This document shows, piece after piece, positions 139 through 34,900 of a DNA stretch of 64,000 nt. The notes beneath the pieces are model-generated. The model saw only the letters and a list, made by a program, of their open reading frames with translations. It made no database searches and was not told the DNA's origin. Position 1 is the first letter of the stretch, and the number at the start of each line of letters is the position of its first letter. The DNA comes from Paramacrobiotus metropolitanus (Eukaryota; Tardigrada; Eutardigrada; Parachela; Macrobiotidae), in NCBI RefSeq assembly GCF_019649055.1, contig NW_026570269.1, forward strand, positions 248,001 through 312,000, written 5' to 3'. A program made the position numbers and the translations under genes.

Positions 139-3100
139 CCAAAATTTTCTTCAGTTGTTCCTCGTATTAGAAATCGGCAACTGCAGTGACAAATAATTCC
201 TCATTTGATAACTGTGAAATGCACTTATAATGTACAATTTTTGTATTGGCGCATGGTTTATCCAAGATGTCCGTAATACTGTATCGTGATCTTTGTACCT
301 TGAATAGTTTCTAAATTTTCTGCTTCACGGTTAATGAAACAAAATGAATGTCTGCACAAAGAGTATTAAAACAAACAAATTACAAAAGCAGATTTATCTT
401 GATACATCACATGGTGGCTGCAACACACTTGCCGAATCCAGCAACCGTGTTTGTGGCAATCAGCAGCGGAAAAAAGCGGATGCATGTCTGCAGACTCCGC
501 ACATGCTGCCGCTAAATTCCCCTTTCCGGCCCACTAACAGCGCAATTGTCCACGTAACAAAAGATACAATTGGATTAATGTTATTTGAATTTCATAAGCG
601 CCGATTCGGCAACATGTCTGAAAAGGACTCCTAATGGACTCAGCTGGCACAGATACCCGTCATTCGACATCGATTATTCTTCCGCCATGCGCTCCCGCAA
701 GCCGCTGCACTGGCTGTCCTGTGCAGTGTACAAAAATACCGTAAAATGTATATACAACACCAAGATCCGCATATACGAGTAACATCATCGATTACAGGAA
801 CTGAGCAAATACAACTTTATTTTCATCACTTGAAATTCGGCATCCGGTTCGCCCTGCACCAAAAGGTCATCAGCGGAATAAGTTATGACCTTTTCCTAAC
901 TTCGTCATGTTAACATTCACTGCACCGCTTGGATAAAACCTTCAATCGCATAAAAAGGTACTGAAACCCTATAGTAACGCTATATATCTTTTTTTTCTAA
1001 CAAACATGAGCATGCGCATGAGAACTTTAATTTATTCGTTTTCACTGTGCTGAATGAGATTCACATAACCTGCAGGCTGCAGGTTGTACCTATACTAGTA
1101 ATTAAAAGGCAGTAATAAATCACTAAGGACTGGTTAACAATAAACAATAATTTATTATGATTTTCATGCGTTGGAGTGCGTTTGTAATTAGTTAACACAT
1201 TTTACTTAAGTATAAATTTAAAACTTTGCAGCTGAACTCTACGGTAAAGTTGCATGTGCGGTTCAGCCATTTCTAAATAATTAAGATTTGGAGGGTTTTT
1301 ACCCGCGAGGCCCCCTACAAATCAAAGTAGCCCGGTTGGTGCGTCGGATTGCAGAAAAGTAGAAAAAAGAGAACAGCTTCGGCGTTGTTGGCCGTTATCG
1401 ATCGCGTGGATATCACAAATAATCGGCAGCTGCCGTATATATAACGAGGCAAATTGCCTGCTTCACAGGTTCTCCTCGGTTTTTAATTCACTTTTTTGTT
1501 CCAGCTCGTTACGTCCCAGTGTCAGGACGCATGTGTTGCCGTGGAACGAATTGCCCATATGCTGCCACATGAGCACAAACACACAGTCGCTGCAGCATCA
1601 GCAGCGCAATCTCCTTTGCGAAGCACACTGCGCATTCTCAATCCTCAATTGCTTTACTCATTTATGCCGAAACGGAAGTCACCCGTTTAGAGAAGCATCA
1701 GTCAGGGGAAATGGCCATCATAAGCGATTAAAATGAGGAGGCGCGGCTGGAGAGAAAAACACACCACACGTACACACGCTTAGTACGGCAGCGACGCGCT
1801 TGTTTTTTGCCGATCGGATGTCGAAGAGTTTAGTGGGCTCTTCGGCGCGCGTGTGTGTGATGCTGCTGCGCCCAAGTGCGTAATGCATCCTCGGAATACG
1901 ACTGGATTCGCGGAATGCGAGTGATGCCCGCCGGATAATCCGATACAGAAATAGAAACGTTTGAAAAAACAAATACACAACGAGGAGCGCAAATCGACGC
2001 CGCAGATGTGTAATACCTCGATGCGGAGAAAATGGGTCAACGGTGCCCGCGTCAAGTGGCCACCGTGCAGCGGGGCAAATCAGCGAACGTGTTCCTCATT
2101 AGATTCCATTAAGCGCGGAATAATATGGACACTCAATTCGAAGTGTAACAATTTCTAAAATCTAACATTTAGTAGACTCGATTCATAGGTTCACCTACAC
2201 AAGATTTTCTATACAAAATAAAACACGTTCTCGTGCAAACATTAAGCCTGCCGACCATAGATTTTCGTTGACCGTTGATACTCGTAAATTCAAAATGTTA
2301 GACGCGTCGCACGAAGTATGTATGTGCACTGCACATTGTGCAGTGGCACCGGTTCAGACTTTCCTAGAATAATATGTGCCACTGATCAATGCAGATTTAA
2401 TACTTAACTTACAGACATTTTTAGCACAGTTAATTCAGTCGCGTATATCAATATGATTTGATGGTTTTGCTGCGTTTAGCAACAAGCTAAATTTGGTTTT
2501 TTTCGTAAAGAGTATGTTAGCAGTTAGTTAATGTTTGAATATTTTGCGGACAACCGCGTCATTCTTACCCTTCTGACCTCACTGCACGAATGTGGGGTGT
2601 AAGTCAATTTAAATACATTAGATTTACTTAACAAAATTTACCGCTAAGAAAAAATATATTTTGTATGTCGCAAACTTTGACTGATTTAAACTGGAACCGT
2701 TAGTTTACGATAATTGGCTGACGCATCTCGAAGATTGAGACGCGTGTGCTTCTGTTCGGATTCACGGTGTAATGGGCGGAGCTGCACAAGAGCAGCATCT
2801 GTACAGCCACTACGGTACTACTACCAGGCAGACAAACACAGCTGAATAAAAAGTGAATGGTGTTTTAAGAAACTGCTGAGTGCCGACCGACCGATTCGAG
2901 GCCGGTAATTCAACACAACGGAGAAACGCTTGATCCCTGTGCTATCCATAAATACGTACATTCTCATGGAGCACCACTATAGTCTATCAATAAATCTGGC
3001 TATGCCAAACAGTTTTCCTCCTTACTTGTTATGATGCGTTTGTGTAGAACAAGAAAGGCCCAAAACGCTCGACGCCGGCTGCAATGGCAATATTGGCCTT

Positions 3101-3742
3101 TTTAGCCGGATGATAATTCTCCCATAACGATCTATCACAGCTGATGCCGGCTTGTTAAGTACCACAGGAATGGCGGTCGGAGTTTTGACAGGTTAATTCA
3201 CCGTCAGTCTCCCTTACGCTGTATACGCTACCGTTGACCAACGTAATCCTGAATTATTAACGGGAAAGATCGTAGTTATCGACACGAGCGGAAACACCGG
3301 CGGAGTGTATCAAGTATATTGCGAATTCGGAAGTGCTTCGGTGACGAAAAAGTAAATTCTTATGCGTTCACCGTTTACATGCATTATTCCTCGTCGTACA
3401 AAGCAGAAAGGGGAGCAGAGCGCAATTACACTACACGTTTTAGTTTCCATTACAAGACACTCGCTTGACACCGGCCGGTGATTCCATCATTGATCATTGC
3501 TCGGCAATTGCCGTGTCGGCTGTAATTATGATCATTACACGTCCACTGGATTATTACCCATCTAGCCCATCATCCAGCTGAACGCGCTCTTGCCACTTTC
3601 AATTCCCCCGGCATCCACCCTGGCCCGTAGAGTGCGCCCGCGCGGCCTCTCGCATTTCTCCCCTGTTATATCGATAATTCTGGGAATTCCTGGTCTTTTA
3701 TCCGTCTGCCGCATCCCCCACATTCCGCTATGCTGACCTATC
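139..3742. other. Intergenic region before the glutamate receptor gene
   Basis: About 3.6 kb between the stop of the truncated left gene and the receptor ATG. The short open frames (for example around 1496-2158) have no recognisable domain and overlap on both strands, which suggests chance. The GC content rises around 1730-2100 and again near 3560-3740, just before the receptor start. A TATATATA run lies at about 1435-1442 with no gene start I can tie to it. I see no RNA gene or transposon. Confidence 0.5.
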
Positions 3743-9700: not shown

Positions 9701-12700
9701 GCAGCAGATCTTCCACGTGGCCAAACGATTGAATCTAATTGGTACCGGATGGGTGTGGATCATCACCGATTGGAGTTATACAACCAGCGATGATGCCTTG
9801 GAAAATTATCCCCACGGGAGTTTGGCTGTGAAATTACGCGAACCGAGCTTTAGCCAGATTAGCCAAACGGCACTGGACGCCGTATCCGGCGCGGCGGCCA
9901 AATTACCGGCACCGCTTATCAGTCGGCTGCAGGATAAAACGGTTAGGCCACTCAGCTGCTGGACTGATACGCAAATGCCGGCTAATGTACAGAAATCCCT
10001 CAAAAACTATACAGAGTAGGTTTAATGAAGTACGTAAAAATTGTTTTTTTGTTGGTAATGCAATTCAGATTGATTAATTTCGCCTTAATTTATTTTTATA
10101 TTTTTAAATAGATAAAGTTCTTACATTTCAAGTGATTTAACCGTGCTTCTGTTGTACTACAAAATGAAAGCTACGTAGGGCACTGATTAGGGCTGCATGT
10201 GTTATTTTTATTCAACTTCCTTGTCGGGGCAGTGATAACGGGTATCTGTACATACAGCTACGTACTACGTAGTAAATACGCTAAATCAAAACTTAACCGG
10301 TTCAGTCATTGTCCGCTGTAATCTGACCTAAGAAAGCAAACTATCTTGCTGAAATGTTTTTGCGATTTGCAGTGAAATTCAGTTGTCCATGCAGAAGGCA
10401 TTCACTGAAAGAGACCGGGTGTCGTTTGAGATTATGGGGCTGATACAGGCAAAAACGCGCCATCGTTGGAGACGCATCGGCAACATCACATCCGTCGGTC
10501 TGCAGACACCCGCTGCAGTAGCATGGGCGGCGACCGAACGTATGGCCGGTGCGCTGACCGAGTCCCGGGGTCATCTGCGTGTTGTGACTAGTAAGAGTTC
10601 GTATATTTTGTATATAAATCAACCGCTAAGAAAAACTGTCTACGTTAAGGAATAAGTCATCCGTTTACCATTGAGGATGATGTCTGCGACGGAATTACGT
10701 GACGGTGGTGAATGGTAACGTTGCTGGTGCTACCAAGAACAAGGATGACCTTAGGGATATATTTGCTGAATTCGAGAACGGTCTGCAGAACAGCGAAGGA
10801 CGATATAATTTCTCGTGTTGCAAAGGCTTGGCAATGGAGTTACTACAAGTATACAACAAGTTGTATATGCAAAAATATCTGTTACAAAATATTTAGAAGT
10901 TCGTTAGAATATTTAGAAGTTCGTTAGAACTTCTAATACAATATATTAGAAGTTCGTTAGAACGTAATGTATATACTTGTACAGGCGGGATTACAGTATT
11001 CACAAACGTATTAGACATTATTCTAGGCACCGGAAATCTGAACGCATCAAAAATCAGCGAAATTTTTTGTTAAATCAGTTCCTTTTAGGCCCTCAGCCGG
11101 GATGTTGGCTTTGACTTTGACACGTACATCGTGGCGGACGGAAAGGACGGGACGCTGGCCGAGCACTCCAACATGTGGGACGGCATCGTCGGCGACGTAG
11201 TGTCCGGTGCCGCCCACATGGGCATTGGGCCAATCAGTGTCACCACCCACCGCAAACACTCGGTGGACTTCTCCAGTCCCTTTTATTATTCCAAATTCTC
11301 TTTCCTGGTAGCCACAACAAAAGCCAAAGTCAAATTATCGGCATTCCTTGAGCCGTTCAGTTGGAAATTATGGATTGCCATCTTTTCTGCTCTACATGCC
11401 ACTGCGATTGCTGCCGCAATATTTGAATGGGTATAATAAAATCAACCACTTTTAAACTTAAAGCTGGTAATAAACGAAAAGTAATAGTTCTGTGCTTATT
11501 ATACACGGCATGTTTACGCGTAATACCGATTCTGATGCATGTGAGTATAGCCAACGGATAAAAAATACATTTATTGATGATTCTGATGCATGTGAGGATA
11601 GCCAACAGAATTTTGGTGAAATGCATCGTTGTAATAAATTGCAGATAAGTCCATTCGGATTAAATCCAACCGGAAGAATGAGGAGTCAGAATTTTACATT
11701 AGCTACGGCTCTGACAACGGTTTACAGTTTATTCTTTAGCCACGTTATGGCTTTCAAGGCACCAAAGTCATGGCCAAACAAAGGTATAACAAGTTATCAT
11801 TATAAATGCTATTATATACATACATACAGAATGCTATTATAAATTTACGATGTTGCTAACTGATATATTAAACGTAATGCTTTCTTTATTTTCAGTGCTA
11901 ATTAATTTCTGGGGGAGTTTTTGTTTCATCATTCTAGCAAGGTAACAAAAGCTGTTAACATGTTTATTGTACATTTCAAGTACGTGTCTATCACTGGAAA
12001 ACTCTGCAACGCTGGTGTTTCAGTTACACAGCAAACCATGCCGCAATATACGCTGGACTAAGCAATAAACCGAATTTCGATAATATCTTCGACAACGAAG
12101 TAGGTAATTTACTCTGTGTTCACATAGAAAACCAATTCGTTCAAGGAACATAGTGAGGGCAAATATTCTTTATTCTAGGATTTGTTAGCAAGGAAAGTCG
12201 CAACTATAAAAGGAAGTTCTGCTGAAATATTTATCAAAAATATTAATGCACAGTAAGTCTTGTAAAGTTTTTCAGTATTTCTAAATACTGGGAGCAAGAA
12301 TTGTCGGATTTAACTAGATTACATGCGCACATGAAACAACATCGATATTTCGTGGAAACAGTCGAGGAGGCAGTGGAAAAGCTCAAGTACAATTAGCAGA
12401 ATATAAGCAATTACCAATTGTAACCGGGATGCCGTGGCGTGGATAGTTGACCTAACAATTTGCTTATGGTCTCACACAGAAATGGAAGCCTGGATGCATT
12501 CATTTACGACGCAGCTCTTCTGGACTACGTGCAAGCCAATGATAAAAACTGCTCTCTGAATACTGCCGGAGCTGCGTTTGGTAGTTTGGGATATGCTGTG
12601 GCGTTTCCAAAGGGTTCATGGCTTAGGGTAAAAAAAGTATTTGTTGCTAATAATTTCTTGTGATGTTTTCTTGCACGAATAATAATTACCCCTGTTGCTG

Positions 12701-12856
12701 GTACTTTCAGACATCAGTCAGCATGGCAATCCTCAAGGTAAAGATCTGCAATAACCTTCAACCAAAAATTCAGTGCTCGGTTAATTTGACGCGAATCCTT
12801 TGTAGTACATGGAGAATGGATTTGTGGATGACCTTAATCGGAAATGGTAAATACTG

Positions 12857-12892
<36 letters not shown>

Positions 12893-14543
12893 CCTTTTTG
12901 ACAATAGCAGTACATATTATTACTTTACAAAATCTAATCGATACATCTGTAAACAACTAACGTTCGTTTGCTAACACCTGAGTGACTACATAAATTATTT
13001 TAAGGCCAAGCACAACAATGACAACATTTTTGCAAATGTGTATCCAGCACGCAACGACTGACGTTCCATCCACACATTTATTACATGCATAAACTGCGAG
13101 TGAAAAATTTCATTCAATTTCAGAATAGTTAGGTTTTATTGTATTAAAATTTGAAACTCTTTTGCAGTATATGTTTCTGGTTTTGACAGGTTTGGTGGAC
13201 TACCGTGCAGTTTGCGATCCGAAGCCACAATCGACCAGCTGGAGCCGCGTGCCTTGGGTTTAGAGGATTTCGCGGGTGTCTTTGTCTTGTTGGCCACCGG
13301 CGGTGCGGTGGGCATTCTCATTCTGGGATTGGAGCACGTTGTGTATCGCTGTCTTCCGCGTCTGAGACGCTCTCCCAAGAACAGTATTTGGCGTAGCCGA
13401 CATGTGATGTTTTTTTCGCAAAAGCTTTATCGCTTCATCAACTGCGTGGATTTGGTGTCGCCCAATTCCAGTGCCAAAGAATTTGCTTCTTCGCTCAAAC
13501 AAGGACAGGTAAACACCAAGTCATCGAATTCAGATAATTATGCGATGCGGTTAAACATAGTCCAAGATTCGATCAACGACAGTGAATCGTAGAGCTGTGC
13601 GTACCAGAAGTTACGCTTAACTGCAAAGTTATACTTAAGTGGTCAGAGAATGTTTCATATAAACGTTTTATTTTCTGTCTAGTTTATTGGAATGTTTCAA
13701 AAGAGTGTCAAGAAGCGCGCCAAGGAGGAAGAATTGCAGCAAAAGCGCACCCGCAACGCCGAAAACTTCTTCGAGACCATCCATGAGCTGACGCGCAATC
13801 TTCGCGAAACCCTTCCCGCCCAGTCGTCCACGGAAACCGACGACATCCTCGCCGACGCCCAGCCGACCTCCAAAACCCCACAAAACGGTGACCTTTTGCA
13901 GCAGCTCCGCCACATTGACAGCGAGAACGTTGTGAAAAACGCCGAACGGAAAAAACCTTCCATCTTATCCAAGAAACTCAGCCGGCAAGAACATGTCCAA
14001 ACGGGCTCATCGGAAACCGAAGATGATAACATCATCCGCTCCTTCCCGGATTTCCAGAAATCCATCAAGAAAGCGACGATCAGCGTGGGTTCACTAAAAG
14101 ACGCGTCCAAAGCTTCCACCAGCGCCATCAATATCCTTAAAGAAATACCGCGGAAGCCAGCGGAGAAACAAGCCAGTATTACACCATCAGATGCACCGAA
14201 GAAATCGGTGTGGGTGACCCGGGACGCGGCGACCAATAGCATGTCGGACGACGAAACCAGTAGCCCGACCACGCCCCTGGCGGCAGCAGCACCGGCCAAT
14301 AAGGCCGCGTCACCTTTGGACGAACACTATCCGTACACTTCACTACGGGACTGGGATGATGTGGATATTGAGGATATTAGCAAGCAGGATCTGATTAAAA
14401 TGTGGCAGTCAGCGGAATGTGATCTGCGACTACAGATACAGAAATTGGCGAAGGAGAAGAATGAACTGTTGGAGGAAAAGGGCAAGCGCGCCGGTCGACG
14501 CGATCGTGGCTCATTCAATACAAAATCAACTTCCATGCACTAG
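3743..14543 (+). CDS. NMDA-type ionotropic glutamate receptor subunit (GluN1-like ligand core, divergent pore), 15 exons
   Basis: Ligand-gated cation channel subunit of the plasma membrane. Exons: 3743-4159, 9414-10015, 10373-10590, 10650-10848, 11089-11430, 11645-11783, 11896-11941, 12024-12099, 12179-12252, 12276-12386, 12480-12627, 12711-12737, 12806-12846, 13190-13508, 13683-14543; about 1206 residues. The order is signal peptide, amino-terminal domain (to about residue 400), S1, M1 (about 570-592), pore loop (610-635), M3 (640-663), S2, M4, and a roughly 290-residue cytoplasmic tail. Family marks include CCKGLAMELL, SPFG, APKSW, SYTAN, DAFIYDAA and MENGFVDDL. The S2 half resembles GluN1 (SSAE, NGF-DDL). 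Exon 4 needs one extra base to stay in frame (see findings). All other phases agree. The pore N-site and the SYTANLAAF motif are altered. An unusual NMDA-type subunit of another class remains possible. Confidence 0.88.
4160..9413 (+). other. Large first intron of the glutamate receptor gene
   Basis: The 5.25 kb intron runs from a GTGAGT donor to a TAG acceptor, both in phase 0. The joined protein reads continuously from QPEMFR into DIAPDYYVP. It contains only short overlapping open frames on both strands with no recognisable domain, AT-rich stretches, and a 29-bp palindrome at 9120-9148. I see no nested gene. Confidence 0.6.
9120..9148. repeat. 29-bp near-perfect palindrome
   Basis: Two 14-bp arms (CCGTATGGATTAAT and its exact reverse complement) flank a single central T. 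It lies in the first intron of the receptor gene. It could be a homodimeric transcription-factor site (the core holds ATTA homeodomain-like half sites) or a remnant of a small mobile element. No flanking duplication is obvious. Confidence 0.7.
10888..10960. repeat. Tandem and inverted repeat cluster in receptor intron 4
   Basis: Two exact 20-bp units, AATATTTAGAAGTTCGTTAG, lie head to tail at 10888-10907 and 10908-10927. A shortened third unit is at 10943-10960. Between them, GAACTTCTAATA (10927-10938) pairs with its reverse complement at 10944-10955 across a 5-nt loop, so the transcript could form a hairpin just downstream of exon 4. Confidence 0.75.
11528..11606. repeat. 28-bp direct repeat, 51-bp period, in receptor intron 5
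   Basis: A 28-bp sequence starting GATTCTGATGCATGTGAG occurs at 11528-11555 and again at 11579-11606 with one mismatch. The copies lie in the intron between the M1 exon and the pore exon. This looks like a local duplication. No function is evident. Confidence 0.75.
12857..12892. repeat. (TA)n microsatellite
   Basis: An alternating TA tract broken by a single ACA lies in the receptor intron after exon 13. It is an ordinary simple repeat and likely length-variable. Confidence 0.85.
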
Positions 14544-14924
14544 GGCGCTCTCTTGACTCGCAAAGGGTGTTTTTTAGGGTGATAATTTATTTTTGACTGT
14601 GATGGCAGAGAAATCTGTTAATCTTTATTCGGTGCATACAATGCCAGTGAACAAAAGCTCTCATCTGCTGCGCGATGGCAGAATCATCTCACAAAATACG
14701 TATTAAAAATTTGAGAAGTTTGAGTTACGTATAGAAGTACTTAAAATGCGTTTCAAAGATAGTTATCAAGCACGACAAAATATAGCCATTCAAGGAGTAA
14801 TAACTGAAAATTAAAATACGCTAATAAAACGTCTTTATTTGTACAAGGTTATACCACACAAAAAAGCAGTTCAAAACTTCTTTAGTCAAAAATCTGCAAC
14901 GCTTATGCGGTGCAAAATGTTTCC
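14544..14924. terminator. Shared 3' region of two convergent genes with facing poly(A) signals
   Basis: The receptor gene (+) stops at 14543 and the astacin-like gene (-) stops at 14925, leaving 381 bp. AATAAA lies on the plus strand at 14823-14828. TTTATT at 14834-14839 gives AATAAA on the minus strand. The two signals are only 5 bp apart and serve opposite transcripts, so the two 3' ends probably overlap. Confidence 0.5.
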
Positions 14925-15731
14925 TTAAAAGTTTTCGGATATCCGTAGTCCATCTATAAAAGGTAGGGTTGTATTCGAGCAATATACAACAGGCTCTGGA
15001 ACTGATGTTCTGCTTACTGGAAAGCCATTTTGTTTAGTCAGGTACACCTTATTGTGGGTGAAAATAAGCAGTCGATTCCTTCCAATATCGAAAAAGGAAT
15101 TTACTTCGGTGGGCCATCCGGTGTGCTGATTCTGTTGCAATATCATCGCATTGTGAAACAACCTATTCTAGACACCGAGGAAAACAGCTAACAATCACCA
15201 GTAAATTGAATGGAGTCTTCGGCTGTAATCGATCCGAAATAAGGTCATACCGAACTATCGAGGACCCTGAAACACGAACAAGCAAAATATTGCATTGTTC
15301 TAATCCTATAGGTCTGTGTCTTGAGGTTAGTTACCGTTGGAAAAACTAAGAATGTTCGAGCTTTTAAACACGCCCTTAATCGGTAGCGGCACGCCAGGAA
15401 ACACCTGTGAAACCGGAGCTGTGTCAAGCAGCTGTTTGTCGCCTTGGCCGGATAAAATCCAAACTGATGCATTCTGCAAATTGTTTCCCATTAATCTCTT
15501 GCTTACATTGCATCCTCTATGAAGCGCCAACATGATTTCAAAAACTACCAAAGGTCACGCAAGAATGTACCTTGAAAAAGTATACATCGCTGTTTATTTC
15601 CGCAGCACTGTCGATATCCTTGGGAAGCAACTCATGGAACCGTTTTTGAATAGTATCCGATGCGACGTTCTTTGGGAAAAAAACGGTGGAGCCATTATAC
15701 ACTCCCTCGACCACTTCCCAAATTTTGTTTC
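14925..15731 (-). other. Hemopexin-like part of the astacin-like gene
   Basis: The exon at 15571-15731 joins in phase 1 to the astacin exon, giving NSIYIGNGNKIWEVVEG, then LLPKDIDSAAEI and DVYFFK. The next exon gives SVWILSGQGDKQLLD, VPLPIKGVF and NILSFSNG. The last exon gives GWPTEVNSFF, LLIFTHNKVYL and the stop. The recurring pattern Pro-x-x-Ile/Val-Asp/Asn/Lys-Ser/Gly followed by an aromatic beta strand is that of hemopexin repeats. In matrix metalloproteinases such propellers bind substrates and partners. Here the role is unknown. A 16-bp microexon (15251-15266), or alternatively a longer exon 9, links the last two blades. I could not decide between them. Confidence 0.6.
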
Positions 15732-18212
15732 CTGTTGATGGCAACAAATGTCGTTGTATATACTGATGCCGTACGAGTAGATGCTAAATGGCTAACATTA
15801 ATACCAACAAGCACACAGCCTGAGCATTACCATTTCCAATGTAAATGCTGTTCTTTGTTTTGAGGCCAAACGTTGGCATAAAATCCAATGATCCTTGGCA
15901 AAGAAGATTGTTATCCTTCGCTTGGGAGTATTCCTGCATTTGGCTAAATACTTGTTCCAGTGGCTTTTCGGGAACAAGTCGGTCGACAAATTTGGTCGAA
16001 ACTTTTAGATTTGCTTGGCAGTTATATGCGCTGTTGACCTTGGCGATGTCACCTGAACTTAACTGCTTCCGTTGGCCAATACGAGCGGACGAGGTGTGGC
16101 GGGGAATTATTGTCGCTAAACCAGCGGCTGCATCCTTGCTAAATGCCGTTGACGAATAATGCATGATCGAATCATAATCGTACGGAGAGTTAGCCGATTC
16201 CGGACTGTCGCTCAATGTATTCGCAGTAATGCCACATGACCGATCATCGGCTAAAACGTTTTTGATTTTAAAATCGTGCAGATCAACATTTTCTTGTCGA
16301 TGTGAAAAAGCGATTCAGGGTCATTCTTACCGATGCAAGCGACATGGTTCCAGTCTACGTCCACGTACGTATCTCGATCGGCTCGGGAATGTTCATGCAA
16401 AAACCTAAAAGCACAGAAATTAGATAAGTATTTATATAATAAGAATAACCGAGCTTAGGTGCCATCATACTGGTTTGATTTTTGCCATAATTTGTGCATA
16501 TATTAGCTGGCTCAAGCTATGTAATGTCATTGTGCAATTAGTGTTGTATCTATCGTTAATAGAACCTTACCCAAGTGTATGCATCAGCTGATGTAGAATA
16601 GTCCCGCTGACCTGCACACATTTGGAAGATTCCAAGTGCATTTTCTGTTCGCCTCCAATCTTTCCGACGAATGAAGCACATCCTCTTCTGGAATTGCTCG
16701 AGATGTGCAAATAGTCTTTTTGGGTTGTTCGGAGAACAAAGCGGATGCAGGTAAACTGGTGGAATTCCAGCATGGCATCGTGAATGAGAATACGTTCATG
16801 GCGGCTAAACTCGGCTTTGGGGTCAATCATAAAGGGTATGATACCGTTCGGCCATTTGGCAACCTTCGAGAAGCGGAAATGTGTAAGTATGCAGAAGCGG
16901 AAATATGTAATATAAGTCAGCCAAACTGTGAAAGATCTCGTACTAACTTGTAAGCTCTAATATACTGTCGAGGACTAGTAAGATTTACTTAGCTCGAGAT
17001 CTACGTTAGAAGCAATCTTTTTTCAGCTATATCAGGACACTGCGCAGTACTAGTACTTGTACTTTTATTCTAAGCGCTCACCTTTAGGGAACTGTTGTTC
17101 CATTGATGCGGCGCTACCAGTATATCGCCTTCTAGGACGGATTTTTCGAAATTGAGTAAATGGTCTGAAATAATGACTAACATTATAAACGAAGCATGCA
17201 AATCGAATTTTTTTCATAATCCCCGCAGCTTACCGTTGTGTTCCTCTGCATTAACTGTGAACATAAAGCATGATTGATGTAATTCTGTATTCCTTGTCTA
17301 TATATCACTTCGAGACGTTCTTAATTGTTATTTTTTATTAAACTCAGGCATTCTGTTTTGATGTACGTCTTTATGAATTTTTGTGATGTGCAATTGGATA
17401 AGTTTAGGCTGTTTAGCTACTACACTCGTAAATTATAAAACAATACATACGTATGCAACAACAAGAATATACAATCGCATTTGCCGTACACTTACTACTG
17501 CTACGATTAACACAATCCGTTTTGTGTAAAATACTTCAAGACACTGAAATTTCGTCAAGATTTCGTGTAATGTTTACCGTTTGAGCCCGGGTTAGTACTA
17601 TCCTGCTTCTGAAGCTGGTCGTTACTGCCGGTGTATCTGTCGGCCTCCACTGCAAAATATCATTTACAAGGTTGTAAGAAACTTACAATAAATTGTGAGT
17701 AGCTCACTTTGGTTGAAACTAGCAAGTACTAGTTAACCACAGAGTGAATTCCAGTAGCACTGGAAAGAGAATATTGGATAACGTGACGCTCTTCGAGATG
17801 TTGGACAAATCTGGGCCATCGGCATCACCTTGACTATAGCACTTTGCTGCGCTCATTGCAAATTAGAAAGATAATTGGAAAGTCTTTATGTTGTATTCTA
17901 ATAAGGCAGATCATAAATGATGGCGTTCAATGATTGGACAAGTTGAAATGCATCAAATCATGCATAATACGAGTACGATTGTGTGAATAATGTAATACGG
18001 CCTCAAGTAAGCTTCAAATCATTTGGTGCTGTTTGCAAAATTTGCAATAAAACAAGATCATTATACAATAATGTGTAACTGAAGTGAATATAGACAATAA
18101 TAATATTTAGCTTACCAATTAAATTCAGCCGCAGTGCTTCGTCAAAGCGGTCACAAATTAAGTATTTCATCCAGGATAACAATAAAATATATAATAAAAG
18201 CTGCGATGACAT
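14925..18212 (-). CDS. Secreted astacin-like pseudoprotease with C-terminal hemopexin-like repeats, 10 exons
   Basis: Exons in gene order: 18116-18212, 17578-17649, 17082-17164, 16571-16863, 16331-16404, 15831-16292, 15571-15731, 15335-15473, 15251-15266, 14925-15162; about 544 residues. The signal peptide (MSSQLLLYILLLSW) is followed by a propeptide with LEGDI, resembling the astacin aspartate-switch motif. The M12A domain (85-299) keeps WPNGIIPF, four cysteines at the usual places (FTC, RGC, SKC, YNC), the third zinc His and GFLHEHSRADRDTYV, plus the Met-turn SIMHY. The zinc helix reads HQLMHTLGFLH, with Gln where astacins have the catalytic Glu. Residues 300-544 form four hemopexin-like blades (PKDIDSAA, PLPIKG, WPTEVNSFF). 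The last two junctions (exons 9 and 10) are uncertain. Without the 99-nt intron at 15732-15830 the frame would instead end at 15784 with a short hydrophobic tail. Confidence 0.8.
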
Positions 18213-21200
18213 TTTTAAAATTACAACAACAAAAGCAGAAGAATTACAGTAGTTTTTATATTTTTTTAAATTAGGCAAATACTTTACTGCGCTGGGTGTG
18301 CGTTATGGATTCCAATGGTAAGCAGTATTTTTAAAAACGGTCTTCAAAACTGACAAGTTACCCAGAATATTCGAAAATGACAGAAGGCGGAAAACGAGGA
18401 GAATAAAAGATCCTGCTCTTTTGTGATTGAAATATATGAGCAGTGCTTTTTCTTGACCCGGCTTTGACCTTTTTGAACACTGCGTACGTACATAATTGTT
18501 GGTACTGCAAAGTTTCAAAAATGTCTGCCCACTCCGTGCATTCTTGTATAACGTCATTTAATATACATATAACGGGATGTTTTTTTGTAGATGCTTACTT
18601 CCGGGTATACTTGATTTTAGCCCCTGTTGGAAAAAAATAGTATGATTTTAGGCTAAACTACGCATTGCAAAGTACGCTAAACTACGCTCACAAAGTACGC
18701 ATTGATAAATTAATATATAATGGATGAGCTCGATTTCGCGCGCGCTATTTATTAATGGAATGAATATTGCGCATTGTTTTAATTACTCACCATGATTACG
18801 ACTGTTGTCAACCCAGCGCGTAAATACTCACACCGAACCGCGCCGAGTCCGTCAGTCCTAATTGAACACAAATTTGAACAAAATGCACAGACACGGATCC
18901 CTGTTTTTAACAACAGCTCATTGCATTTACATAGTCCGATGATATAAAATGATGATATCGTGCATTTATTGCAATTTTACAGACCTAATTAAGTTCTACG
19001 CACAAACTCGAGCGCTTACTGTTCATACGTAAATACTTTTAATTTAAATAAAAGTTGATGTGGTTTCACATGGAACGTTTGTGTGCACGGCAAGTGCGAC
19101 CCTGATGACAAGTTGTATCAAACGTATTGATGAAATACATGCAAAAACATAACGTCTGCGACTGCTGCAACCGGCACGTACTGCACGTGATACATGTTGG
19201 TGCTTTCATTTACGTTAATTACTACCTGACTGCACTAAGTGTCATGCATATTAATCAATTTCCCATCTGCAACATAAAAGAATGATTGCAAACAACTCTC
19301 TTTTTTGCCGCACACAGTGCCGGTTCGCATGTTTATGCACAGCAACCCTAGTACACGGTTAACAACAATGTGCGAAACCGATGAGAGGGGCTTGCACAGG
19401 AATGTGCGTTTTTTGTTCTAAATATAGCTTTTAAAAGATTTTTGGTATTCAAAGTCACAGCACGATAGCGCACGAAACGTCTATGATATGTAAAGAAAAG
19501 AACCGTAAATAATCGCAGAAAACTCGTTAGACATCCAAAAGATTAATTGCTTAAAAAAATTTGGGTGGGTTGACGATGTCCCATTACGACAAATCAGCTA
19601 AAATATTTTCCAACATTTAAGGAAACACCTCTAAGAAAATCAAAAAAATTGATACTTCTTACAAATATGCAAACTGTCTTGTAGGTTAGTTTACTCGAGA
19701 AACTGTTAAATTTGATCAAGCCAGCATAAACTACTGAGTAATTTGACATTTGTTGGTACTACGCGGTGTAGATTTTGTCGACAACAAACTGTCATCCATT
19801 TTAACTTCCGTTTCGGACAATGTAACAAAAATATATTTTGATAAATGATGAAACGATACATTATATAGAAACGTTCTGCAATTTGTTACACTAACCCCTG
19901 TTAGCATATGTCGCCAAGCAATGAAACACTGGTCCAGTTGGCGTAAGCAGCGGGAAAATTTCCTAAAAACTTCCTTGTTATTCTGCTCAAAAAATTAGCT
20001 CGCTGTCTGCGTTAACAAATGGGTTAATTGTGAATTGGACAGAGTTCTGAATGGTCTGAAACGCATCTGCGCCTGCCAATGCCCGATGCGGTAATACATT
20101 TATGGCTGATTAATTTTTGCGGTTTTTACGGAACTTATCAAGCAGTCGCTTTACATAACGGTTTAAAATGTTTGTCGGTTGAGGTATGCAATTAGCACGC
20201 TTGATTGTGTGTTATTGACTTTTTACCGAGTTTCATAATCGACGCGACAAGCAAAGCAGATATTGAACTTGAATTCCATGCGACTGTAGCCGACATATGA
20301 TTATGAAATTCCCACGCTGCAGTATCATGGAAAACCAAACATACCGCCTCTGCATTTATGCATAATTTAAATTAAGTTCTAAACTGTGGTTGGTTTTGGG
20401 TCCATATTTTACAATGCATGAAAATTTCGTAAAGAGATTTTGTAAGACCACTGGCAATATGAGGAGGCCAGCTCGCGTTATGTATAATTTTTCAATATAC
20501 TTTAATTACATGCGGCTGCCGCTTGTGAGCGCATCCGATTGTATTACGTATGTTGTGGGACTGCGGTTAGGGGCTCAAAAAATTATATTGTGAAAATAAT
20601 TATCATTTATACCCACTCAAAATGGTTGTGAAATCAGCACAACTAATGCATACGTATACATCCCACACGATTTGGAGCAAAACTTTCGCTGTATTCGTCT
20701 CCGAAATAAACCACAATCATGTAACCGTTTACGCCTACACTATTAACCACTAATAACTGTGAATACTGCTAATCAGTAATATTAAACTATTGACTATAAA
20801 ACTAAAATGTTACGAGAACTTGCAGTTACCAGAACTTACGGTGGTTGCTAAAATAATGTGATGATTGTGTGTACTGAGGCAGACGATGTGTGAAATGATG
20901 GATAAGCATGCCACAGCTTAGGGAATTAAATCTAAAAATAATATTATGAATTATTTATTGAAAATGTAATATTTTGCTCTGCCAGAACATTGCAAAGATA
21001 ATTTCATGCTGCATTCACTGACACTGCCTATTTTCTCGTTTTGGTATTTCAGGTTTGAGTTTCGATTTTAACGCTACCATTGCAGAACGTCGAGATAGTT
21101 CGTCAAATAACAATGGCCAAACTAATTAGGTATAAATAATTTAAAAACTGCCAAAGCCGTGAATTTGCAAAATGATGTAGCATATCAACCGCGAAAACAT

Positions 21201-21533
21201 TTGATGCATATTGAGGGTTGAAATTGCCGGGTTCGTCGCTACTGGCAGCACTGATGTGGCCGCGGGCGACGTTCTTTCACTCACAGGTGTTATGTTTGTA
21301 ATTACGAAATTCTTTTCTCTGCCTGGCATTGCAATTGTCTTGCAGGGCTGAATCATTCTAAGTGGGCAAAAAAGTGAAAGGCATATTTAATATAAAAATC
21401 TCACACACCGCACTGCATTCACTCAGACTCATTTCACTTTTCGACGCATTGTTCTTCTTTCTTTTGTGCTTACACCGGCCGCGATACAGTTTCGGTAGAA
21501 GCACACTGGTGAAATTATCCATTACCTGCAACC
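18213..21533. other. Divergent intergenic region between astacin-like and DM13 genes
   Basis: About 3.3 kb lie between the starts of two genes read in opposite directions, so both promoters should lie here. I found no convincing TATA box, RNA gene or coding exon. The open frames (for example 18303-18557 minus, 20390-20593 plus) are short and unrecognisable. A small direct repeat of CGCTAAACTACGC-like units occurs around 18650-18700. Confidence 0.5.
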
Positions 21534-24500
21534 ATGCTCGCCACACTCTTCAGTCTAGGTAATGTCCATTTATACTAATTAACAAATATCTGACAATGTT
21601 TGCATATATAAATATTGGTACTGACTAATATTTTTACTGGCAGTTTAAGGGAATAGGCAGAATGCCTATTTTTATGCGCCTATGCGACAACAAAAATAGG
21701 CAGAATGCCTATTTTTGTTGTCGCGCTGAATGAGCTTGTTGGTAAAATTTAATTATCGTATATTTTGTTTATTTGCTTTGCATTTGCGCATGATTTTGAT
21801 ACGGTTGTTGTAAATGCATGTGTGTGCAGGTGCATTAATATTAGCGGTACATGCCGATGATCCCAGTACATGGCTCGGCACCCTGGACACACTGGCGCAC
21901 GGTGTCAACGGGGAAGTGTTCGCCGAAGATGACCACACCCTTTTGATCAAATCCTTTGTCTATGATGGCGAGACGGATGACGGATTTTTTGTTATGTCCA
22001 AGGGAGAAAACCTGGAAGAACCGCTAGAGTACATTGCTGACGAAGTGGGCAGCCGGCAGAGCCTGGCCACGTACATGAACGAAGACATCCGATTGCGACT
22101 TAATCCCGGCAAAACCATTGCCGATTATAAATCCTTCGGCGTCTACTGCCAGAAATGCTCGGTAAGCATATCAGATAAATTTTAATTATTATCACTAATT
22201 TCACAAACCAAGAAATCACTGCAGTTGCAGCATGTGTTAGCATTTTGAAACAGAAAACGAAGGCACTCCGACTGCAAAAGCTGTTTAAAATTTAATTTAA
22301 AAATGTACTTTTGTATCGTGAGAAATTCGTCGGCGTCTTATGAATGAATTTATTTCAGCTAACAGTAAGCACCGGCGTTTTTGCGAAAATGAATGACATG
22401 CCCACAAACAATGCTAATTATTGCGATTAGCGGCACTTAGTCTTGGTATGGCATGAAGGCATGCAGGAAAAATTCAGAGAAACCTCTTTTGCTTACGGGG
22501 ATACCACTTGAGAAACACGTTTCACTTTCTCTTTCTTTTGTAAACAGCTAATTTTTCCGATTTGTTACATAACCTCGCTAACAGCATTGCATTTGGTGAC
22601 TTCCGCCTTTTTTCAACGCATCGTCGCTTTATTAAAATCACACAGTTCTCTAATTTCTAAGGCGAATGAGGGTTAAAAGTGAAGACATTTTAAAAACTTA
22701 AAAAATGAATAGTAGCAGCATCGTTCACTACTTTCAAATCGGTAATTAAGAATAACAGGTTCCTTGTCTTTACAGCAAGCTTACGGAATGGTGACATTCA
22801 ACAAATTCCCCAAACCGTTCGTGCGCAGCATGGTCTCACTGGGCAAACTCGCTAACACCGTCCACCATGTATCCGGTGAAGTGTTCGCCATTGATGAACG
22901 AACTCTGCTACTCAAAGGTTTCAATTACGACGGATTAAGTGAAGGTTTGTTGTTCTACATACATCTCGCTCTCCTCGTCCATACCAACACACCGTTGACA
23001 TGTTGAACCAGAAAACATGTACACATATTTATTGAAAACATAATCAACTCTACTTAACGAATACACTACCGCTAAGAAAAAAGAATTTCCCGCTCAATTT
23101 TGCTCGTTCGTGGCGACAGTAACGTGCGTACGTACGCGACGGCCACAACCTGACCGGTGATTAGTATGCGGCATATGTAGATGCGCGCGAATGTATTTGA
23201 CCTTTTACACTTTTAACTTTAAAGTGACACCTACAATTTTTTCCCTGTCAATTACGTAACCGATGACCTTACATAATTGCATACAAGACAATAGCAGACA
23301 GTCTGGTCGTTTTATGATTTTTATGATCGTGTTTAAAATTTATTGAACATATTTAGATGGTCAGTTCGTTCTTTACCATGATGGAAAGAATATCAACGGT
23401 ACCAGCGAAATCATTGACGATGAAGACGGTACGGATAATCCATTGGTCACCTACCGCGATATGGATGTCATTCTTAGAATCAAAGCCGGAAAGAAAATCT
23501 CGCACTTCCGCGGCTTTGCTGTCTACTGTGGCAAGTACAACGTAAGTATTCAAGTTAAATTTTAATAATTAGTGCAATAGATTGACACACGAAAACAATT
23601 TTTCTTAAAACTTCAACGATGTGTACTACTTACATCCATATAAGTGCAGTTCAAAATTGTAAAAGCCAATAATTATGCTGTAATGATAATTTAATGCCGA
23701 GCAAACGTCAAATTTTATCTGGTCATCATGCAGCTAGGTTACGGGTTCAAGGGTATAAGACAATAATTTTCGGGTTAATTAATGCAATCTTCTTGGCTGA
23801 TGACACTTTGCAGTGAAAGTGAGTAGATCAATAGACGAATTGTTCTTTCCGGTGGAAAAACTAAACGAGCAAATTATTCATTAATGTGATGAGAAATTAC
23901 CGGCAGTAAAATCACCATTAATCCAGTCATCGACTTCCGTCAGCTCATTTTTCTTTTCTTTCTTTTGCAATAAATCTAGTCACATAGATCCGCATGCATA
24001 ATAATATCAACAGTTATTAAACCAGTGAGATTTATGTGTTCACAGTCATGAGTAAAGCGAGTGATTTAATGCGTAATTAGCATAACACAACACAAATATC
24101 TGTTTCGAAACCTCTTTTCCCAGGACAGTACTTAAACTAATTCAAAAATCTGCCCTTTTAGTTATGATATGTAGCTAAGCCTTCAAAATATTTTAACAAC
24201 ATGTAAGAGAATAAATTTAATCGTATGACTGCAGTAATTAACATAACGTTTAATTACAACGCTTTACAGCTTAATTTCGGCAACGTTGACTTCCCGCTCA
24301 AAATGCGCATTCCTCGTGGTGCCAAGAAATCGTCCGAACGCCCGATTTTCCTTGGTCCGTTGGTGAACAACAGCCATAACGTTGGGGGCAACGTTTTCAA
24401 AATTGATGATAAAACCATCTTGATTACCCGCTTCACCTACGACGGCATGAGCCCAGGTATGCTATATTTCTCCCTGACTTTGTCAACAAATCTGTAATCG

Positions 24501-31950: not shown

Positions 31951-34900
31951 CTGCAAAAACAGAAAAAATCTGCAACATGTGCTGCATTTAAACTGTTACC
32001 GATGCTTACATAGAAGTACGACTGCCGATATCACCATCGCAATGATAGCACCGTACGACATCCCTAGCCGCTGCTCTTTCATCGCCGCATTGCAGTTCTG
32101 CCCGACGTAACCAGGCTGGCACATGCACGCATATCCGGGACTGCGATCCGTCTTGTCAGTTTTAATAAAGTTCTGGCATGTTCCACCATTTCGACATATC
32201 CCTGGATCCTCTTCACATTCATTGACATCTACGCAGTTACTCCTACAATCACAATCGTCACGCAAACCTACTTCAATGGCTATTAATCTCAATTGTACCT
32301 GTCACTAGCGTCATCGGACTTTTTGAATCCAGGTGGACACTGGCACGATGCCAGCCGCCACAGATCCACGCAGATCATCGGATCGGGGCAGATAAACCCC
32401 TTACAGGGATCTTTGGACTCACAGTTGTCGGTTACGTTGACAGCCGTCAGAATTCTAGCTCGGTTGCTTTGTTCGTTGTGATCCATCGGCAGGGATTCCC
32501 CGTCGTAGCGGACATCGTTCATACAGCCTTCAAAGTCAAACACCACTTCGAATTCCGACATGCCGCGTTCCTGAACGCGAGCCCCCAAGGTAGCTTCCTT
32601 TTGTAGTTTCATCTTCCGATGGGATGCAGGTGTGGGAGAAATTAGTTCTCCATACCGTCGTCCGTCGCCTCCGTCAATGGTCATCACCGCATCCGCACCA
32701 TATCTATAACATCAATGAACATTTAATAGTGTATCAATCCGAAATTCAGCGCATTGTACTGGTTGCATATGAGAAATCTTTGGATAAAAAATACACCAGT
32801 CAACATGTTTTGAACGGATGTAGTATCATGTCACTTATAACATTACGGACTCTTCTACTTCCTCTTTTTCCACGACACATAAATAATTCATCGTTCACAA
32901 TCAAGAGTCTTAACTTACCGGTTGACTCTGACAGTGTGCCATCGCCCATCATCCACTGGAAAATCTCCCAACGTCAAAATGTATTCCTCGTTTTTATTCG
33001 GGTTCAGGTCGTAGCGGAAATGCAGCGTATGATTTCTGATCTCCAAGATCAAATACTCTCCACCGCTAATGCTGGTCGCCGCAAATATCTGACCGAAAGC
33101 TTTCCGGGTCCGGAACATCAGCTGCAACGAACTAGAGTATTCGTTGATGTCAAACGCCAGTTCCAATCGCATAAAACTCCGCTTCTCAAACGACTTCTCC
33201 TTGGTCCGGAAATTACACTGCTCGCCCCTGAATCCCGGATAACATTCACAATGGTAATCATAGTATGTCCCGATGCACTGTCCATTGATGCACTTCCGGG
33301 ATATCTCGTTCGGTCCGCCGCCGCACATGCGATCCGACGGCTCACAGCCCGGTGCAGATTCTTTAGCGTGTCCACTTGACTGCATGTCGTACATATTTCC
33401 GTTGTAGATGACATTCCGCATGCAGCCTTCAAAGGACCGCTGTGAAAAGGGCGTGGATGAGCTGGAAACGCCATACAGTCCGCCCAACTGCAACGGCTGA
33501 TGGACATTCAGTCCGGTCTGAAAGCCAAGCGTCTGGCCGCGCGCTTCGCAAGCAGAAAGGTCATTTGAGGGAGTTCCAGAAGTTTCCTCGGGATCGGTGA
33601 TGTTAGAGTCACGGCACCAGTCGACGACGATACGTGCGCTCTGACCAGACCAGTAGATGTCCAAACGATGCCATGATCCATCGCTGATCGGTCGACGCGT
33701 TGCAACTTCCAATTTCAATGGCGTTCCTGTAATCATTTGCATTTCCAGAATTACGAACATCGCTTCAAATGTAATATGATCGAAACCATTACTGAAATTC
33801 CGAGAAACGAAAACAACCGTTCAAGTTTATTCACAAGAAAACAATTTTCCACTAAGGCAACCAAAACTAAAAATTTTAACGTACAAGACAAAAACCGCAT
33901 CACAGTAGTAGTGACTGTTTACACTTTACATTTCGCAGTCGCTGCCTTTGCTCCTGAACTACGAAGGTATTTATTCAATCGATTTCAATATTAACTGAAG
34001 CGTCTTTTACTGCTGCTGCCACATAGTAAACGTACGACTAGCGCGTCTTGCAGTAAATAAAATAAAATATTAATAATTAGACATCGAAAACAAAGCAATC
34101 AACTGTCGTCATAAATTTCAACTCCGAAAATAACAGAGAAACTTACCGAATCCCAAGTCAAGATGCACTCTGGGACGACCTTTCGATAAATCTACTGCCA
34201 GAAAATCTGTCTTAGCGCCATTCTTGGTTCCAATCGGTCCATTATACACCAACAATCCTTCCGGTATTTCGGTCATGAACTCAAAACTCAAGTGCGAATC
34301 CTGACATTGTTCAAGCGTAGGGAACCATGCGAATGAATTTTCTTTAAAATTTCGCATGGTTCGTTGACATCGCGGTCCATCGAAGCCATCAGGACACTCA
34401 CAATAGGGATGGGGCTCCCAATCATCGCGACAAACGCCACCATTATAGCACTGCAGTGTAGCGCACGACTCCGGTTTCCTGAAATCGGTGGCTTTACAAA
34501 CACACTGGCGCTCGTGTTTAATCGTTACGGCCAAGAGGGAAGTTTTATTCGCATTTATCAAAGTGGCAACATCATCCAAAGGGACAGAATGGAGTGTTGT
34601 GCAGCCCTCCTCACAGATGTCATCGTTACAAAATGTTATAGGAACCTGAAAAAAAATATTTACAAAAATTTCAAATTCAAAAATAAATGGGTAACGGTAT
34701 TAATTTATTTTTAACAAATTTTAACCACTGATTTTTGACGCATACGTACTAATGTCCGACTTAAAACAAGTTCCTGCATTTCTGAATCCGCCACATATTC
34801 CAGAAACGTATTATTAGCACTAAGTTATTCATAGATACAGACATATGTTAAGCTGGTCCATGCTAGAGTCTCTGAATAGTAAATTACAGGTTTACCATAT

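What the first reader, a model, noticed from the sequence alone, without database searches (positions are those of the whole stretch)
14925..16292. Astacin joined to four hemopexin-like blades
A 99-nt GT-AG intron (15732-15830) in phase 1 joins the astacin exon to three or four downstream exons whose encoded segments show repeated hemopexin patterns (PKDIDSAA, PLPIKG, WPTEVNSFF, each followed by a YFF or LIF strand). Hemopexin propellers are typical of matrixins, a different metzincin family. Astacins usually carry CUB, EGF, MAM or ShK modules. An astacin-hemopexin chain would be a convergent MMP-like architecture, here on a catalytically dead core.
Basis: inference. Interest (0 to 1): 0.75.

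Follow-up and report, generated by a model that had tools for sequence, protein, structure and literature searches.

The report
Astacin fused to MMP-type propeller
A gene in what is probably a tardigrade genome joins a protease-like domain of one family (astacin), apparently inactivated, to the propeller-shaped binding domain typical of another family (matrix metalloproteases), and three other genes of the same genome, one with an intact catalytic site, show the same combination.

Summary
On the minus strand an astacin domain (Pfam 176.6 bits) continues through a phase-1 GT-AG intron (15830-15732) into four exons that encode a hemopexin-type tail. The spliced tail matches Pfam Hemopexin at E 4.2e-4 (20.6 bits, just under the 21.3 cut-off); 8 of 9 PDB hits are hemopexin domains. 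Single tail exons gave no hemopexin match. The strongest support is a second gene, L006: it has counterparts of all six introns with the same phases, four at exactly the same motif position, carries the astacin end and the start of the first blade in one exon, and its tail passes the cut-off (26.8 bits). L015 and L024 also show both domains. Four of four MMP genes examined have the blade-2 and blade-3 introns at the same position and phase, so the tail is MMP-type, probably gained by exon shuffling. The window gene reads HQLMH; L006 keeps HEILH. Correction: the astacin exon starts at 16250, not 16292. No transcript or fold was available. Inferred role: a secreted, zinc-binding, non-cleaving binder or competitor of active relatives.

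The parts
17082..17164 (-). Propeptide exon, DHLLNFEKSVLEGDILVAPHQWNNSSLK (first base of the Asp codon from the exon before); LEGD resembles the FxGD aspartate switch of astacin propeptides (motif recalled)
   Evidence: reading; GT donor, AG acceptor; not tested with a profile
16571..16863 (-). Astacin exon: mature N-terminal part (VAKWPNGIIPF...) to HQLMHTLG; contains the altered HExxH (HQLMH)
   Evidence: Pfam Astacin 73.1 bits for the ORF; splice model
16331..16404 (-). Astacin exon: FLHEHSRADRDTYVDVDWNHVACI (third zinc His and family motif)
   Evidence: Pfam Astacin 22.3 bits alone; junction HTLG|F shared with L006, phase 2
15831..16250 (-). Exon with the end of the astacin domain (Met-turn SIMHY to AYNC), a linker, and the Cys and first strand of hemopexin blade 1 (LLCQGSLDFMPTFGLKTKNSIYIGN)
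   Evidence: Pfam Astacin 62.6 bits for the ORF; 80-nt intron 16330-16251 preferred
15732..15830 (-). 99-nt phase-1 intron inside blade 1; reading through it meets the stop at 15784-15786
   Evidence: L006 and MMP L016 have a phase-1 intron at the same place relative to the blade-1 Trp
15571..15731 (-). Rest of blade 1 and first strand of blade 2 (GNKIWEV...LPKDIDSAAEINSDVYFFK)
   Evidence: blade 2 is the Pfam Hemopexin match (tail residues 97-140)
15335..15473 (-). Rest of blade 2 and first strand of blade 3 (NASVWIL...VFPGVPLPIKGVFKSSNILSFSN)
   Evidence: phase-0 intron before it shared with L006 and 4 of 4 MMP genes examined
15199..15266 (-). Rest of blade 3 (GSSIVRYDLISDRLQPKTPFNLL)
   Evidence: phase-1 intron before it shared with L006 and 4 of 4 MMP genes examined
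14925..15131 (-). Blade 4, second tail Cys (VVYC) and stop codon
   Evidence: 38% over 34 residues to L006 blade 4; phase-0 intron before it, in L006 about two residues away in the alignment

Best explanation
The locus is one gene for a secreted pseudo-astacin with a C-terminal four-bladed hemopexin-type propeller, a member of a small family (four genes found) in this genome. The tail descends from the same kind of hemopexin module as in MMPs and was probably joined to an astacin by exon shuffling. Shown by sequence: domain order, splice frame, corresponding introns in L006 and MMP genes, loss of the catalytic Glu in the window gene with the three zinc His and the Met-turn kept. Inferred: the propeller binds a matrix or protein partner as an exosite, the zinc site still binds zinc and perhaps substrate, and the protein works without cutting, as a competitor or scaffold beside active relatives such as L006. 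Architecture about 0.93 likely, the non-cleaving binder role about 0.45; the confidence given is for the whole, between the two.
For: Astacin 176.6 bits. Spliced tail: Hemopexin E 4.2e-4; 8 of 9 PDB hits hemopexin domains. L006: Astacin 194.4 bits, tail Hemopexin 26.8 bits over the 21.3 cut-off, 11 of 11 PDB hits MMP hemopexin chains. The six introns of the window model have counterparts in L006 with equal phases (2,1,1,0,1,0), four at exactly the same motif position. hhalign to MMP hemopexins P 5.9e-8. MMP genes L016-L019: blade-2 phase-0 and blade-3 phase-1 introns at the same place, 4 of 4; blade-1 phase-1 intron in L016. L015: Astacin 28.6 and 30.1 bits, Hemopexin 31 bits; L024: Astacin 29.4 and 33.8, joined hemopexin piece 24.2. 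Codon positions 1/2/3 of the two tails identical in 43/56/32% of 209 codons, the pattern of constrained coding sequence. HQLMH in the window, HEILH in L006. Exactly two Cys in the window tail, before blade 1 and after blade 4, as in the closing disulfide of hemopexin domains (recalled).
Against: No transcript, no fold. The window tail itself is just under Pfam's cut-off and single exons do not match. Whole-genome searches with the window tail and the L006 tail found only their own genes, so the family rests on the astacin part, a weak local match (38% over 34 residues) and intron places. Two of the six introns (before the Met-turn region, before blade 4) are off by one and about two residues against L006. 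MMP gene L020 runs through blades 1 and 2 in one frame, so the introns are not in every MMP. In the astacin tree the four genes are not one clade (two changes; 0% of 200 bootstrap trees with one), though one clade is not rejected (p-AU 0.126). L006 as modelled lacks the second tail Cys. The non-cleaving role is not tested at all.
Confidence: 0.6

Rival explanations
1. Alternative ends: the main transcript retains intron 15830-15732 and stops at 15784, making an astacin with a short hydrophobic end, and the propeller is made only from a minor spliced form or not at all.
For: The read-through frame is open to the stop and adds a hydrophobic end, VCLLVLMLAI.
Against: Downstream exons stay in frame over 0.9 kb with corresponding introns in L006 and constraint-like codon identity; even the shorter product would end inside blade 1.
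Confidence: 0.08
2. Decaying gene: the window copy is a young pseudogene of an active astacin-hemopexin protease.
For: Catalytic Glu lost; L015 and L024 have lost more of the zinc motif.
Against: All modelled exons are open with standard GT-AG sites; zinc His, Met-turn, four standard astacin Cys (recalled numbering) and both tail Cys kept, not what free decay would spare.
Confidence: 0.08
3. Active protease after all: Gln stands in for Glu or activity is low but real, so the protein cuts matrix proteins through its exosite like an MMP.
For: Zinc ligands and Met-turn kept, and a propeptide with an LEGD motif.
Against: The Glu is the general base of metzincins (established knowledge, recalled); L006 keeps it.
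Confidence: 0.1
4. Two neighbouring genes: an astacin gene ending at 15784 and a separate hemopexin gene.
For: A stop codon lies between the two parts in the genomic frame.
Against: In the window and in L006 one exon carries both the astacin end and the start of blade 1; the same order is found on another contig.
Confidence: 0.02

Closest known systems
Astacin family (MEROPS M12A, Pfam PF01400)
   Same: Complete astacin domain, HxxxHxxGxxHExxRxDRD and SIMHY, LEGD in the propeptide
   Different: Catalytic Glu replaced by Gln; hemopexin tail instead of the CUB, EGF, MAM or ShK modules usual for the family (recalled)
Matrix metalloproteases (M10A) of the same genome, L016-L019
   Same: C-terminal hemopexin tail with blade-2 and blade-3 introns at the same position and phase; protease domain followed by a propeller
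   Different: Catalytic domain is astacin, not Peptidase_M10; three MMP catalytic pieces had no tblastn match to window 10001-22000 or to L006, L015, L024
Inactive ADAMs and other pseudo-metallopeptidases (review PMC11266112, passages seen)
   Same: Metzincin fold with a broken active site, proposed to act by binding
   Different: ADAMs have other C-terminal modules; the word astacin occurs once in that text, in a list of metzincins

Membership tests
Astacin (PF01400, M12A) | Profile match over the whole domain | tested here: met
   176.6 bits, positions 1-188 of 189, cut-off 22.5
Astacin (PF01400, M12A) | HExxHxxGxxH zinc motif with catalytic Glu | tested here: not met
   HQLMHTLGFLH: three His kept, Glu is Gln. 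So a pseudoenzyme homologue, not an active astacin
Astacin (PF01400, M12A) | Met-turn SxMHY | tested here: met
   YDYDSIMHY, read
Hemopexin domain (PF00045) | Repeat profile over its cut-off | tested here: inconclusive
   Window tail 20.6 bits against 21.3; L006 26.8, L015 31, L024 joined piece 24.2, all over it
Hemopexin domain (PF00045) | Four collinear blades | tested here: inconclusive
   hhalign runs collinearly from tail residue 59 to 225 against MMP hemopexin 11-178; only blade 2 matches Pfam alone; no fold computed
Hemopexin domain (PF00045) | Cys before blade 1 and after blade 4 | tested here: met
   LLC and VVYC, the only two Cys of the tail, read; in L006 the second is missing in the model
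Matrixin (MMP, M10A) | Peptidase_M10 catalytic domain | tested here: not met
   No PF00413 match listed in the window and no tblastn match of three MMP catalytic pieces to window 10001-22000
Any of these | Expressed full-length product | not testable with these tools
   No RNA or protein data held

The most novel reading that the evidence does not exclude
A lineage of this (probably tardigrade) genome rebuilt the MMP plan on an astacin core: an MMP-type hemopexin module moved by intron-mediated exon shuffling into an astacin gene, the fusion multiplied, and three of the four copies found turned into non-cleaving proteins that keep the exosite, a built-in set of antagonists or scaffolds for the one copy with an intact catalytic motif.
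Probability: 0.4. Interest if true: 0.75.

Novelty: new variant of a known kind. Interest (0 to 1): 0.6.

Why it matters
It would show two metzincin families reaching the same protease-plus-propeller plan, one by borrowing the other's module, with the donor's intron places still visible. The set of one intact and three degenerate copies makes a direct test possible of what a hemopexin exosite does on a non-MMP core and whether dead copies restrain the live one.

Tried and rejected
The first splice attempt was off and redone. One search had one acceptor a base off and gave a shifted product; its codon counts are void and were redone.

Single-exon profile searches of the tail, and whole-genome searches with the window tail and the L006 tail, gave no new relatives. 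L007 (HLLMH, SITHF) is a pseudo-astacin, but no hemopexin was found in the two ORFs of it that were scanned, and the local blade profile gave only a weak match upstream of the astacin part, E 0.39. L014 has a clear hemopexin match (37.9 bits) but no astacin or MMP catalytic match in L014 or L025.

One origin of the four fusions: not settled. The tree of 31 astacin rows needs two changes and no bootstrap tree of 200 has one, with long branches warned of; one clade is not rejected, p-AU 0.126. The rows were chosen: the four family genes, L007, six near relatives (L008-L013) and twenty of the listed long matches, not a random sample.

Species: G000 has 169,799,020 bases in 533 contigs; C1 is 4,484,719 long. 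The Paramacrobiotus sp. TYO assembly is given as 170,483,395 bases, 684 scaffolds, longest 4,484,941 (PMC8277472, passages). Close, not identical: probable, not proven. A fatty-acid-binding-protein search was not informative.

Papers: searches (and 39 for the assembly). 51 papers hold both astacin and hemopexin (40 listed). Passages only were read in PMC12549020, PMC1867822, PMC11788884, PMC3675644, PMC8277472, PMC11191345 and PMC11266112. None of these passages describes an astacin-hemopexin chain; most subscription papers and all protein-architecture databases were out of reach, so absence from print is not shown.

Structure prediction was not sent: its stated rule takes only proteins that the DNA gives letter for letter, which a spliced chain is not.

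Full report
What is there. The gene lies on the minus strand. The working model has exons 16863-16571, 16404-16331, 16250-15831, 15731-15571, 15473-15335, 15266-15199 and 15131-14925, with introns of 166, 80, 99, 97, 68 and 67 nt, all GT-AG, phases 2, 1, 1, 0, 1, 0. A propeptide exon, 17164-17082, reads DHLLNFEKSVLEGDILVAPHQWNNSSLK; a short hydrophobic start, MRLYILVVAY, near 17480 could be the signal peptide but was only read by eye. The product from VAKWPNG on is 453 residues.

The astacin part scores 176.6 bits in Pfam. It keeps the three zinc-binding His, the HEHSRADRD stretch and the Met-turn SIMHY, but the catalytic Glu is Gln (HQLMH). Of 31 astacin sequences of this genome printed, chosen and not random, 26 have HE at this place and five do not: the window gene (HQ), L007 (HL), L041 (HH), L015 and L024 (KT).

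The tail. Spliced, 248 residues match Pfam Hemopexin at E 4.2e-4, 20.6 bits, just under the curated 21.3; within the longer chain it is 17.7 bits. A phmmer search of the PDB sequences gave nine hits up to E 10; eight are hemopexin domains (MMP1, MMP2, MMP9, MMP13, hemopexin), the best at E 0.0016 and most of them weak singly, and one is TraR. The exon ORFs on their own had no hemopexin match, and the genome-wide Hemopexin search did not list the window.

The sister gene L006 (contig C5, 338500-347000, minus). It was found through an astacin exon 47% identical to the window gene and a 34-residue match of the fourth blade, 38% identical. Its model has Astacin 194.4 bits and an intact HEILHNIGFFHEHSRPDRD and SVMHY; its tail alone scores Hemopexin 26.8 bits, over the cut-off, and 11 of 11 PDB hits are MMP chains. 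Exon 3816-3571 of L006 carries the astacin end and the start of blade 1, so the fusion does not hang on a splice there; the same holds for exon 16250-15831 of the window. Each of the six introns of the window model has an L006 counterpart of equal phase. Four sit at exactly the same place by motif (HTLG|F; blade 1, the split residue four before the Trp; blade 2, YFFK|N and YFFE|N; blade 3, the split Gly six before the Tyr). The one before the Met-turn region is off by one residue and the one before blade 4 by about two. L006 has two introns more. The two tails are identical in 59 of 209 aligned residues and the astacin parts in 94 of 191; the tails score 177 against at most 56 in 500 shuffles; codon positions 1, 2 and 3 agree in 43, 56 and 32% of the tail codons.

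Two more genes. L015 (C3, 1550500-1559500, plus) has two astacin exons (28.6 and 30.1 bits) and, about 0.8 kb on, a hemopexin exon (31 bits), all over the cut-offs, with a Pro/Thr-rich open frame between. L024 (C3, 2558500-2567500, minus) has two astacin exons (29.4 and 33.8 bits) and a hemopexin piece that scores 24.2 bits when two exons are joined, while the unjoined ORFs do not match; a Thr-rich stretch lies before it. Both have lost two of the three zinc His. That each is one transcript is inferred from order, strand and nearness.

Where the tail comes from. Fifteen of the 17 Hemopexin matches of the genome lie by Peptidase_M10 matches, as in MMP genes; the other two are in L015 and L014. 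In four MMP genes read codon by codon (L016-L019) the blade-2 intron (phase 0) and the blade-3 intron (phase 1) are at the same place as in the window gene, four of four; L016 also has the blade-1 phase-1 intron, which the other three lack. L020 runs through blades 1 and 2 without a break and L021 was not worked out. hhalign of the two tails with the four MMP hemopexins gives probability 94.7, P 5.9e-8, over 165 columns (tail residues 59-225). So the tail is MMP-type hemopexin by descent; exon shuffling from an MMP gene is the simplest account, inferred.

One or two fusions. In a tree of 31 astacin rows over 113 columns L015 and L024 are sisters (100/99), but the window gene and L006 are not tied to them: the label needs two changes and none of 200 bootstrap trees has one. 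Long branches are present, and one clade is not rejected (p-AU 0.126). Open.

How it most likely works. Propeptide and an exosite propeller are as expected of a secreted metzincin. With Glu replaced by Gln the zinc site should still form but not activate water (established for metzincins, recalled). The best guess is a protein that binds what L006-like enzymes bind, without cutting, and so competes with or positions them; inferred, about 0.45.

Novelty. Astacins usually bear CUB, EGF, MAM or ShK modules (recalled). Eight paper searches and the passages read after them showed no astacin-hemopexin chain, within the limits told under Tried and rejected. The organism is probably the tardigrade Paramacrobiotus metropolitanus by assembly size and longest contig, not proven.

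Noticed in passing
G000, whole genome: Very large astacin family: 164 exon-level matches, a lower bound since only 150 of 445 candidates were scored.
   Followed up: partly
L007 (C6:235000-243000), 2845-3504: Another pseudo-astacin, HLLMHVLGFGHEHNRPDRD and SITHF in place of the Met-turn; no hemopexin found in the ORFs scanned.
   Followed up: partly
L041 (C50:1005650-1006300): Astacin with HHILH in place of HExxH.
   Followed up: no
L014 (C12:1609500-1618500), 4447-3980 minus: Hemopexin match of 37.9 bits with no MMP catalytic or astacin match found nearby.
   Followed up: partly
L022 (C37:935500-944500): Two neighbouring Peptidase_M10 genes without any listed Hemopexin match.
   Followed up: no
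L024, 6874-5936 minus: Repeat-like open frame (units of the kind ALDSSGSSVTRSLNG) upstream of the astacin exons.
   Followed up: no
window 16331-16250 region, minus: Two extra Cys close together in the spliced window protein (VACIADDRSCGI), not present in the L006 model; could form an added disulfide.
   Followed up: no
window 32289-41201, minus: Long open frames that read like cadherin and laminin-G/EGF repeats, probably a large cadherin gene; recognised by eye only.
   Followed up: no
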